Below, one piece after another: positions 24,702 to 26,339 of a stretch of 64,000 nucleotides of DNA (the first letter of the stretch is position 1; each line of letters opens with the position of its first letter). The notes below the pieces were generated by a model. It was given only the letters and a program-made list of their open reading frames with translations, ran no database searches and was not told the DNA's origin. The stretch spans positions 1 to 64,000 of the forward strand of contig NZ_JAFUSK010000048.1 in assembly GCF_017471675.1 (NCBI RefSeq), in the 5' to 3' direction. Source of the stretch: Pseudobutyrivibrio sp. Lineage in GTDB: Bacteria > Bacillota > Clostridia > Lachnospirales > Lachnospiraceae. A program made the translations under genes and the position numbers.

Positions 24702-24925
24702 AAATCTTCATTCCTCTTCTTTCATAGATTACCTATAAATTTTAATTCTTTTTTATGAAATTTCATACGTTATAATCATTATTTTATATGTACATGACTA
24801 CTTATGTATAACTTTTTATTGACATTAATAATTACTACTGATATTATTAATTGGTCTTTTTTTCTTAATTTATCTTTTTCTTTTTAATTCCCACAAAAAG
24901 CATATTAATTTAAGGAGGGATACAT
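24702..24925 (+). promoter_or_regulatory. AT-rich spacer with a consensus promoter for the orphan nuclease-like gene
   Basis: This gene-free stretch is very AT-rich. It carries TTGACA (24819-24824), 17 bp, TATTAT (24842-24847), a near-perfect sigma-A promoter on the plus strand about 70 bp before the presumed translation start. The segment CATATTAATT occurs at 24901-24910 and again at 24923-24932, on each side of the ribosome site AAGGAGGG. Confidence 0.7.
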
Positions 24926-25684
24926 ATTAATTATTTAAAAGCGAAATATAATTCTATTGAAAATAAAATAGCAAATTTAGAAAAGCAAGTTGCCCAACTT
25001 CCAGATGGCGAACTACAATGTAGAACCAATGGAAAATACACGAAATATTATCAACGTATAAACAATAAAACTAATTATATTCCCATGAACAATATATCTT
25101 TGGCAAAGGATTTAGCAACTAAGAAGAAGCTTCAATTAGAATTAAAGCTTCTAAAAAACAAAGCCATGTACATTGACCTATTACTTAGCAATACGGCTGA
25201 GGCAGAGCTTTTACAATATAAATCAAATCCTAAAGTCTGCTCACTTCTTAATGATAATTCAAAAGCTATAAGCATTTCAGAATGGAGCAATGCGCCATAT
25301 AATAAAAACCCAAACTATAAAGAGCAACTTACTTTTCCCTGCCCATCAGGTCAAATAGTACGATCTAAATCTGAAGTCTTTATAGATATGGTGCTTTCTT
25401 CAAACAATATTCCTTATAGATATGAATGTGAGCTTTTACTAAGTAATCATTGTTATTATCCAGATTTCACTTTTAAACATCCAATCACTGGCGAAATCTT
25501 TTATTGGGAGCACTTTGGCATAATGGACAATGAAGATTATGCCTTTGCAGCATTCAATAAGCTTAAACAGTACTATCATCATGGTCTCATACAAGGGAAA
25601 AATCTGATAACCACCTATGAATCTAAGGCCAAGCCTTTCAGCTATAAAGAAGCGGAAGCCGCTATTAGCTTTTTACTTATCTAA
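24926..25684 (+). CDS. Orphan PD-(D/E)XK nuclease-like protein, probable ATT start
   Basis: The frame reads as one protein of 252 residues from ATT at 24926, 6-7 nt after AAGGAGGG. The first in-frame ATG is at 25085 without a ribosome site, and the 53 codons before it look coding: a coiled-coil start, then LPDGELQCRTNGKYTKYYQR. I recall this as a Lachnospiraceae family of unknown function with the same N-terminus. The C-terminal half has V-R-S-K-S-E (about residue 146), YECELLL, YPDFTF and YWEHFG, the spacing of a PD-(D/E)XK nuclease core. Base composition is much more AT-rich than neighbours, suggesting transfer. ATT initiation or a lost ATG start are both possible. Confidence 0.6.
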   Translation: MNYLKAKYNSIENKIANLEKQVAQLPDGELQCRTNGKYTKYYQRINNKTNYIPMNNISLAKDLATKKKLQLELKLLKNKAMYIDLLLSNTAEAELLQYKSNPKVCSLLNDNSKAISISEWSNAPYNKNPNYKEQLTFPCPSGQIVRSKSEVFIDMVLSSNNIPYRYECELLLSNHCYYPDFTFKHPITGEIFYWEHFGIMDNEDYAFAAFNKLKQYYHHGLIQGKNLITTYESKAKPFSYKEAEAAISFLLI

Positions 25685-25727: not shown

Positions 25728-25998
25728 TTGGGCGCGATTTCTACACACCCCCACTACTTTCGTATTTAGCGCCCAACGTAACTTCAATTATTGCCATGTT
25801 TTGGGCGGATTCTTCGCGTAAAGTCACTGTTTACGTTATTCGCGCCCATGAAATCAACTATCAGTGTTATTTCATTGGGCGTGATATTGCTATAAAGCCC
25901 ATATTTCCGTCGATGAGCGCCCAATCCACAAATCAACCTAATATCACCTTGGGCGCAATCTAGCCGCTATCCCCATGTTTTCGTTCCTATGCGCCCAA
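25728..25998. repeat. Four-copy, 74-bp-period array of TTGGGCG-bounded units
   Basis: Four diverged units of 48-50 bp lie at 25728-25776, 25801-25848, 25875-25924 and 25949-25998. Each opens with TTGGGCG and closes with CGCCCAA (CGCCCAT in unit 2), so unit ends are complementary. Starts are 73, 74 and 74 bp apart. A weaker internal core (CCCAY, TTTNCGT) and spacers resembling ATCAAC-TAAT-ATCACC are also shared. It lies between the orphan nuclease-like gene and the ATP synthase terminator and fills most of a 380-bp gene-free stretch (25685-26066). No open frame or known RNA family is apparent. Confidence 0.85.
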
Positions 25999-26004
25999 TC
26001 CACA

Positions 26005-26033
26005 CAAAAATAAGGCGCCGCAAACGCGGCGCC
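26005..26033 (-). terminator. Intrinsic terminator of the ATP synthase operon
   Basis: Perfect 8-bp GC stem GGCGCCGC (26014-26021) with GCGGCGCC (26026-26033), loop AAAC, followed on the minus strand by TTATTTTTG. It is 33 bp after the last gene of the operon. Confidence 0.88.
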
Positions 26034-26066: not shown

Positions 26067-26294
26067 TTATTCTGTTGGCTTTTTGGCAGCACCATGTCGT
26101 TGCTGATACACCATAGTCAGCATATCCTGCTGATATTTGTCATCGTTGCTGAGGACCTTGAGTTTGTCTTTGACCTCATTCTTTCGGGCACGTAAGGTCT
26201 CAAGCTCTTTCATGAGCTGTGCTTCCTCATCCTCATACCTTTTCAATTGAATCTTTAAATCTTCAATATCACGTTTTGTATCAGCATCAAGCAT
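26067..26294 (-). CDS. Small coiled-coil protein at the end of the ATP synthase operon
   Basis: A 75-residue charged protein, nearly all predicted coiled coil (about residues 4-50: KRDIEDLKIQLKRYEDEEAQ and LMKELETLRARKNEVKDKLK). I do not recognise the family. The ATG with first base 26294 is 8 nt after GGGAGG; an upstream in-frame codon lies before the ribosome site. It follows atpC by 45 bp and precedes the operon terminator, so it is cotranscribed. Its role may be unrelated to the enzyme. Confidence 0.65.
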   Translation of the reverse strand: MLDADTKRDIEDLKIQLKRYEDEEAQLMKELETLRARKNEVKDKLKVLSNDDKYQQDMLTMVYQQRHGAAKKPTE

Positions 26295-26339
26295 AGTGTT
26301 ACCTCCCAGCCACACGTAAGGCTAATTTCAGGAGAAGCC

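What the first reader, a model, noticed from the sequence alone, without database searches (positions are those of the whole stretch)
25728..25998. Undescribed array: four TTGGGCG...CGCCCAA units at 74-bp spacing
Unit starts are 73, 74 and 74 bp apart, close to seven helical turns, and ends pair in each unit while interiors have diverged but retain a core (CCCAY, TTTNCGT). Unit 2 has an extra internal stem CGTAAA/TTTACG (25817-25822 with 25830-25835). Spacing is kept better than sequence, which suggests selection for phased protein binding or for a chain of RNA hairpins. It directly follows an orphan nuclease-like gene and could be its substrate, target or cotranscribed RNA. It is not a CRISPR since the repeated part is imperfect and the spacers are alike.
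Basis: partly seen in the sequence, partly recalled or inferred. Interest (0 to 1): 0.75.

Follow-up and report, generated by a model that had tools for sequence, protein, structure and literature searches.

The report
Nuclease with helically phased palindrome array
Four evenly spaced inverted-repeat units beside an unstudied nuclease gene turn out to be one case of a widespread pairing in which members of a nuclease family sit next to their own arrays of short mirrored DNA sites, spaced by about whole turns of the double helix, which points to a so far undescribed protein-on-DNA system.

Summary
Four units, TTGGGCG...CGCCCAA, start 73, 74 and 74 bp apart, 43 bp after a PD-(D/E)XK-like gene whose multi-copy family has no Pfam or NCBIfam match. 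Of 158 family loci examined, 88 carry a regular array of alternately inverted 7-mer arms (52 with six or more), against one four-arm array in 400 kb of control DNA of the same genus. Arms differ between family branches and follow the nuclease: proteins over 70% identical shared arms in all 23 pairs, those under 40% almost never. Across 35 arm groups the periods are only 50-54, 62-65, 72-75 and 83-86 bp, that is about 5, 6, 7 and 8 helical turns. Spacing changes inside arrays also tend to come in steps of about 10.5 bp. Arm mutations are mostly uncompensated without G-U bias, which argues against RNA hairpins. Arrays with the same arms also lie in other intergenic sites without the gene. Best reading: double-stranded DNA platforms for the cognate nuclease, spread as a mobile, REP/RAYT-like but unrelated system. 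Binding, cleavage and mobility are inferred, not shown.

The parts
24912..24919 (+). Shine-Dalgarno-like AAGGAGGG of the nuclease-like gene
   Evidence: read from sequence; a similar sequence at the same place in G008 and G023
24926..25684 (+). orphan PD-(D/E)XK-like nuclease gene, probable ATT start codon, 252 aa; N-terminal conserved region of unknown fold plus C-terminal T7-endonuclease-I-like domain
   Evidence: no ATG/GTG/TTG in frame before the conserved P.G.L motif
25728..25776 (.). array unit 1 (arms TTGGGCG and CGCCCAA)
25777..25800 (.). inter-unit spacer 1
25801..25849 (.). array unit 2 (right arm CGCCCAT; incidental inner stem 25817-25822/25830-25835)
25850..25874 (.). inter-unit spacer 2
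25875..25924 (.). array unit 3
25925..25948 (.). inter-unit spacer 3
25949..25998 (.). array unit 4
26001..26033 (-). terminator-like hairpin and T run of the convergent ATP synthase operon; the array begins directly beyond it
   Evidence: read from sequence; compared with sites that lack the array in G025 and G015

Best explanation
The array is a double-stranded DNA platform of alternately inverted, helically phased recognition sites for the nuclease encoded next to it. Shown by the sequence comparisons: array and gene are linked; arms co-diverge with the nuclease; periods cluster near whole helical turns, so arms of one orientation face about the same side of the helix; arms are kept mostly as sequence rather than as pairing; arrays also occur without the gene. 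Inferred: the N-terminal region of the nuclease reads the arm, two protomers bind an inverted pair, and dimers assemble cooperatively along the array with the endonuclease-I-like domains on one face. Inferred with less confidence: this assembly lets gene-plus-array cassettes and bare arrays be inserted or copied into intergenic sites, a REP/RAYT-like selfish cycle with an unrelated enzyme, while a weak start codon keeps the enzyme scarce in one branch.
For: Linkage: 88 of 158 family loci (665 kb) hold a regular array of at least 4 arms, 52 of 158 at least 6; 1 array, of 4 arms, in 20 random 20-kb pieces (400 kb) of six genomes of the genus and, with a looser chain detector, 70 chains of 6 or more in the family loci against 0 in those pieces. 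Among 30 atpC loci chains occur only in the 4 that hold this array or its orthologues. No other gene family recurs in more than 3 of 57 array loci. Phasing: 35 arm groups, mean resultant 0.82 at 10.5 bp, best 0.83 at 10.7, 0 of 20000 uniform simulations as high; the same with medians, and 0.82 for the 17 groups seen only outside this genus; 31 within-array deviations, resultant 0.62 at 10.5; same arms with spacing changed by about one turn, CTGTCAC 43/31 against 43/40-41 and TTTATCA 45/28 against 45/38. Co-divergence: Mantel r 0.585, 0 of 2000 permutations, 57 loci. Sequence, not pairing: of 421 deviating arm positions 386 are one-sided; A.C 107, G.T 94. Trans copies: CTGTCAC units at 11 places in G025; one (C57) has the gene, nine were read and have none, one was not read. 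Sites with and without insert.
Against: 70 of 158 family loci gave no array with the exact-7-mer detector. In 118 unrelated loci (870 kb, fetched because they hold one arm pair) the same detector found 5 with at least 4 arms and 2 with at least 6, two of these near 53 and 62.5 bp, so such chains also arise elsewhere, for reasons not looked into; an earlier detector without the regularity rule found 16 of 118. Arrays lie 5' of the gene in 41 and 3' in 16 of 57 loci, so there is no fixed geometry. Thirty-five of 421 deviating positions are two-sided, 21 of them complementary, against 15.5 two-sided expected, so a weak pairing constraint is not excluded. Gene and array are neighbours, so common descent alone gives some co-divergence. 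Arm groups come from 31 partly related genomes and are not fully independent. The canonical catalytic Lys position reads F, so activity is uncertain. No binding, cleavage or transposition was observed, and no structure could be predicted.
Confidence: 0.6

Rival explanations
1. The array is bound by a different host protein (a chromosome-organising or regulatory factor); the nuclease is a passenger that uses such sites as a safe harbour.
For: Arrays occur without the gene in intergenic sites and lie on either side of the gene.
Against: Arms change with the nuclease, and several arm types coexist in one genome, each beside its own nuclease; no other gene recurs at the loci.
Confidence: 0.17
2. 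Purely selfish REP-like element: arrays are products of repeated insertion or tandem duplication and the phasing merely reflects the geometry of the copying complex.
For: Dispersed arrays, arrays of different systems side by side, near-identical units in some arrays, sites with and without insert.
Against: Interiors have diverged while arms and phase persist, which suggests continued selection; only a few sites were compared and no target duplication is certain.
Confidence: 0.13
3. Chain of RNA hairpins: type III antitoxin-like or guide-like RNA processed by the neighbouring nuclease.
For: Each window unit can fold as RNA (z -1.1 to -3.1 over both strands); type III toxin-antitoxin loci also carry repeats beside a nuclease gene (recalled); a mild excess of two-sided complementary arm changes.
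Against: No G.U bias and mostly one-sided arm changes; near-whole-turn quantisation of spacing has no evident reason in RNA; no Rfam match above chance; arrays lie on either side of the gene.
Confidence: 0.08
4. Chance or ordinary low-complexity repeat.
For: The window array is small; chains of arms turn up in 5 of 118 unrelated loci too.
Against: Shuffles give no match; orthologous arrays persist at 87% identity in G006 and with diverged interiors in G008 and G023; strong linkage to the family.
Confidence: 0.02

Closest known systems
REP/REPIN sequences and RAYT (TnpA-REP) transposases
   Same: Short inverted repeats in extragenic DNA, non-autonomous, sequence groups tied to particular enzymes, enzyme genes flanked by the repeats (abstract of PMC3116915, passages of PMC3733652)
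   Different: Enzyme is PD-(D/E)XK/endonuclease-I-like, not an HUH tyrosine transposase; no GTAG end in the window arms; regular arrays near whole helical turns; most of each unit is not self-complementary
TIGR-Tas
   Same: Array next to one protein gene, upstream and/or downstream; repeats constant in a locus and different between loci (passages of PMC12045711)
   Different: Tas proteins carry a Nop domain; TIGR has two distinct 8-12-nt repeats with 9-nt spacers and makes 36-nt guide RNAs; here one arm alternates in orientation with period 50-86 bp and no RNA signature was found
COG4636 (Uma2, name recalled) PD-(D/E)XK family
   Same: PD-(D/E)XK proteins related to Holliday junction resolvases, displaced catalytic Lys, proliferating in genomes, proposed to be selfish (abstract of PMC551604)
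   Different: No Pfam match of our family at all; no phased arrays mentioned in the abstract
T7 endonuclease I
   Same: Profile of the family matches it over the RSKSE...PDF part (E about 3e-4)
   Different: Extra N-terminal region; the position of its catalytic Lys reads F (by-eye alignment, T7 residues recalled); chromosomal, multi-copy, array-linked
Plasmid centromeres such as sopC/SopB (recalled)
   Same: Tandem, roughly helically phased units each with an inverted repeat bound by a cognate protein
   Different: Protein is nuclease-like; no other gene recurs at the loci; chromosomal intergenic sites

Membership tests
REP/RAYT (REPtron) | HUH Y1 tyrosine transposase | tested here: not met
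   no Y1 transposase match in Pfam or NCBIfam for 60 members; the family profile matches T7 endonuclease I
REP/RAYT (REPtron) | GTAG tetranucleotide at one end | tested here: not met
   window arms TTGGGCG/CGCCCAA; other arm types not surveyed for it
REP/RAYT (REPtron) | dispersed intergenic non-autonomous copies matched to an enzyme lineage | tested here: met
   CTGTCAC, GACTATA and TTGGGCG arrays without the gene in relatives; not in this genome for TTGGGCG
TIGR-Tas | Nop-domain Tas protein | tested here: not met
   no Nop match in Pfam
TIGR-Tas | two alternating 8-12-nt repeats with 9-nt spacers | tested here: not met
   one arm in both orientations, arm-to-arm gaps of about 20-60 bp
CRISPR-Cas | near-identical repeats, unique spacers, cas genes | tested here: not met
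   interiors similar but diverged; no gene other than the nuclease recurs at array loci
Type III toxin-antitoxin | ToxN/AbiQ-like endoRNase with repeat RNA antitoxin | tested here: not met
   no toxin family match in Pfam; no clear RNA pairing signature; expression not tested
PD-(D/E)XK / T7 endonuclease I | sequence or fold relationship | tested here: met
   PDB profile E 3.3e-4 over about 40 positions; weak PHROG endonuclease and Holliday junction resolvase matches in up to 10 of 60 members; fold prediction switched off
PD-(D/E)XK / T7 endonuclease I | canonical (D/E)xK catalytic Lys | tested here: inconclusive
   E195-H196-F197; invariant K148, or K212 (90% or more), could substitute
PDC-S68 (PADLOC candidate defence protein) | large multidomain protein with this C-terminal domain | tested here: not met
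   60 of 60 members match; in the window protein only residues 119-248, against the end of a 1221-position model

The most novel reading that the evidence does not exclude
A previously undescribed class of bacterial genetic system: a lineage-diversified endonuclease-I-like protein and its own genome-dispersed arrays of inverted arms phased on the double helix, several orthogonal pairs per genome, the enzyme held down in one branch by AUA/AUU/AUC start codons, working as a mobile or genome-organising nucleoprotein array.
Probability: 0.55. Interest if true: 0.93.

Novelty: categorically new. Interest (0 to 1): 0.85.

Why it matters
The family is present in 31 of 391 sampled genomes of the class, in 17 of 222 genera, often in several copies, yet has no family model in Pfam or NCBIfam. 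If each nuclease reads its own arms, nature offers dozens of orthogonal compact protein-DNA pairs whose specificity can be compared directly, and a new kind of repeat-plus-enzyme element. The whole-turn rule gives a sharp, cheap test (+5 against +10 bp). It would also explain a class of intergenic repeats that could otherwise be taken for RNA hairpins.

Tried and rejected
Rfam on 24.7-26.4 kb: only two chance-level hits. The plasmid collection gave 7 and the phage collection 3 partial matches, none covering 80% of the protein; viral contigs gave 2 loci without an array. Weak Pfam/NCBIfam hits (AvrB_AvrC, XopAH, Tis1_ImmP and others) are below cut-off and were dropped as noise. The N-terminal region has no PDB match (best E 0.56); my idea of an integrase-arm-like fold is unsupported. 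The transposon-end reading (arms on both sides of the gene) holds in 10 of 57 loci against 0.9% by chance, so it is not the general plan. Integron attC-like ends were considered from memory and dropped, not tested. Paper searches for the system showed nothing describing it; only listings were seen, apart from four papers of which I saw abstract or passages. The control array in L261 (CAAAATA, 4 arms) and the chains in L026, L031, L068, L070 and L119 were counted and not followed.

Full report
WHAT IS THERE. The window holds four units framed by TTGGGCG and CGCCCAA at 25728-25776, 25801-25849, 25875-25924 and 25949-25998. Starts are 73, 74 and 74 bp apart. Between arm starts the gaps alternate 42-43 bp (inside a unit) and 31-32 bp (between units), roughly four and three helical turns. 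The array lies between a convergent pair: the orphan nuclease-like gene (ending 25684) and the terminator-like end of the ATP synthase operon (26001-26033). In this genome the exact arm pairs occur only here, in either order; with the shorter pattern TGGGCG...CGCCCA one further match lies on contig C50, of a kind that recurs as a single 39-bp unit in many relatives and is not an array.

THE GENE. The open frame begins upstream of the first in-frame ATG (25085); the conserved N-terminal motif lies before that ATG. Aligned with 59 relatives, the protein has invariant RSKSE, DF, E-H-x-G and other residues. It has no Pfam or NCBIfam family. A profile of the family finds T7 endonuclease I in the PDB (E 3.3e-4, profile positions 143-183) and all 60 members match the C-terminal part of the PADLOC candidate PDC-S68. 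So it is a PD-(D/E)XK-type protein with an N-terminal region of unknown fold. By eye, the usual catalytic Lys position reads F; the His before it is invariant.

RELATIVES OF THE LOCUS. G006 has the array at 87% identity; its contig begins inside the end of the gene, so the gene could not be read. G008 and G023 have a 65% identical gene at the same place with four units of the same arms but other interiors. G025 and G015 have the same neighbours without gene and array at this place.

THE FAMILY CARRIES ARRAYS. The gene is multi-copy: 8 matches in this genome, and 32 of 61 genomes examined, this one included, have it; 31 of 391 genomes of the class, 17 of 222 genera, at E up to 1e-20. I scanned 158 loci around family members (30 loci, 60 fetched, 40 fetched; a few are C-terminal matches inside larger proteins) for chains of alternately oriented exact 7-mers with regular spacing. 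88 of 158 have at least four arms in a chain, 52 of 158 at least six, 70 none. Controls: one four-arm chain in 20 random 20-kb pieces from six genomes of the genus, and with a looser detector 70 chains of six or more in the family loci and none in those pieces. In 118 unrelated loci of 870 kb, which had been fetched for holding one arm pair, the same regular detector found 5 loci with at least four arms and 2 with at least six, the latter with periods of 62.5 and 53 bp; the version without the regularity rule found 16. I did not look into what those are. No other gene family recurs in more than 3 of 57 array loci. For the later tests I kept arrays of at least five arms within 700 bp of the gene: 62 arrays in 57 loci; one array was further away. 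The window array itself, with four exact arms in the chain, is not among them; its orthologues in G008 and G023 are.

SPACING IS QUANTISED NEAR HELICAL TURNS. Grouping the 62 arrays by arm similarity gives 35 groups. Their mean periods are 50.2-53.8, 62.3-65.0, 71.8-75.3 and 83.0-86.0 with nothing between; the mean resultant is 0.82 at 10.5 bp and highest, 0.83, at 10.7; none of 20000 uniform draws between 49 and 87 bp reached it. One of these means (L271, 62.4) averages a 52-bp array with a larger gap in it; with medians the result is the same, and the 17 groups seen only outside this genus give 0.82 at 10.5 on their own. The detector allows periods from 24 to 150 bp. The loci come from 31 genomes, 18 of them of this genus (my count), so groups are not fully independent. 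Arrays with the same arm but different spacing differ by about a turn: CTGTCAC 43/31 in L135 against 43/40-41 in L134; TTTATCA 45/28 in L130 against 45/38 in L192. Inside arrays, 31 deviations of more than 4 bp from the usual gap have mean resultant 0.62 at 10.5; two orthologous loci count twice there, and some deviations (6, 37, 79) do not fit. In ten dispersed CTGTCAC arrays the 34 unit steps are 74 (23), 73 (5), 84 (4), 85 and 64.

ARMS FOLLOW THE NUCLEASE. For 57 loci, pairs of proteins over 70% identical share an arm run of at least 6 nt in all 23 cases, at 60-70% in 90% of 10, at 50-60% in 40% of 15, at 40-50% in 4% of 126, below that in about 1% of 838 or fewer; Mantel r 0.585, 0 of 2000 permutations. 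Exceptions above 50% include GACTATA against TGCTATAA at 69%. Because gene and array are neighbours, shared descent contributes.

DNA SITES RATHER THAN RNA STEMS. In 53 arrays with six or more arms, 386 arm positions deviate on one side only and 35 on both, 21 of the latter complementary; two-sided changes exceed the 15.5 expected, a mild result against my reading. Mismatched pairs on the gene strand are A.C 107 and G.T 94, so no G-U preference. Single window units can fold, as an inverted repeat would. A core, about AACGAAAATATNGGGTTT, starts 11-13 nt after the arm start in 78 of the 89 units that have the anchoring motif, of 113 units from arrays with several different arms; the alignment is anchored on the motif and counts some units twice, so it is partly circular. 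It runs on the minus strand in the window.

ARRAYS WITHOUT THE GENE. CTGTCAC unit counts per genome: G025 43, G000 32, G023 27, G016 11, G008 8, others 0-3, with 0-2 for the reversed control. In G025 they fall at 11 places: one beside the nuclease, nine read and without a family gene in the flanks held, one not read. GACTATA units: G019 and G001 16 each, G021 6, G012 4, others 0-3, against a reversed control of 0-6, so single matches of that pattern mean nothing and only its arrays count. Of 20 dispersed stretches fetched, two contain a family gene; of 30 arrays in 18 of these stretches two overlap, in part, an ORF of 100 aa or more. Arrays of different arm types lie side by side (L404, L407, L408, L413). 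At the hypF-side intergenic site G000 and G025 have gene plus CTGTCAC array, G022 a 46% identical gene with its own array, G023 a CTGTCAC array without a gene, G019 a GACTATA array without a gene, G012 neither. The G019/G012 comparison gives the cleanest insertion-like difference; at the other sites the boundaries were read by eye and are less sharp. The window's own arm type has an orphan three-unit array in G025 and G023 with no family gene in the flanks held (the G023 contig ends soon after).

START CODONS. Of 105 family genes with the N-terminal P.G.L motif, 66 have an ATG/GTG/TTG with a Shine-Dalgarno, 22 have none but an ATA/ATT/ATC with one; 11 have no ATG/GTG/TTG at all before the motif, the window gene among them, and 10 of these 11 have such an ATA/ATT codon. 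This looks like low or regulated initiation, as known for infC (recalled).

MECHANISM. I take the arrays to be double-stranded platforms: the nuclease binds an inverted pair of arms and assembles along one face. Binding is inferred from phase and co-divergence. What the platform is for is open; insertion differences and bare arrays favour a mobile element of REP/RAYT type, while persistent arms amid diverged interiors suggest the sites remain under selection.

KNOWN OR NEW. REP/RAYT and TIGR-Tas are the nearest in plan, and each fails a defining feature (see the membership table). Searches of the held papers showed nothing that describes such a pairing; most subscription papers and preprints are not held, so an earlier description is not excluded.

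Noticed in passing
window 24912-24928 and family loci such as L127, L132, L133, L141, L191: Family branch with AUU/AUA/AUC start codons behind strong Shine-Dalgarno sequences; 22 of 105 genes lack a canonical start with a Shine-Dalgarno but have such a codon.
   Followed up: partly
G023:C2, G000:C15, G016:C108, G025:C89, G008:C7, G006:C121, G027:C147: Family members also lie within about 2 kb of a second atpC-like gene in these seven genomes (coordinates), as if ATP synthase operon ends were favoured sites.
   Followed up: no
L404, L407, L408, L413: Arrays of different arm types sit side by side in the same intergenic region.
   Followed up: partly
L346 against L349: Bare GACTATA array in G019 where relative G012 has none; the junction is AT-rich with a possible short TTATTATT-like duplication.
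   Followed up: partly
L119 and L031: Unrelated genomes (Metallococcus carri, Tychonema sp.) hold regular chains of 13 and 6 inverted 7-mers with periods 53 and 62.5 bp; whether coding repeats or something alike was not checked.
   Followed up: no
window 26067-26315: Small coiled-coil-like ORF of unknown function directly after atpC, also there in the close relatives read.
   Followed up: no
L148 (G004) 2394-2988: Array of 24 arms with period 51 and near-identical units, a possible recent expansion.
   Followed up: no
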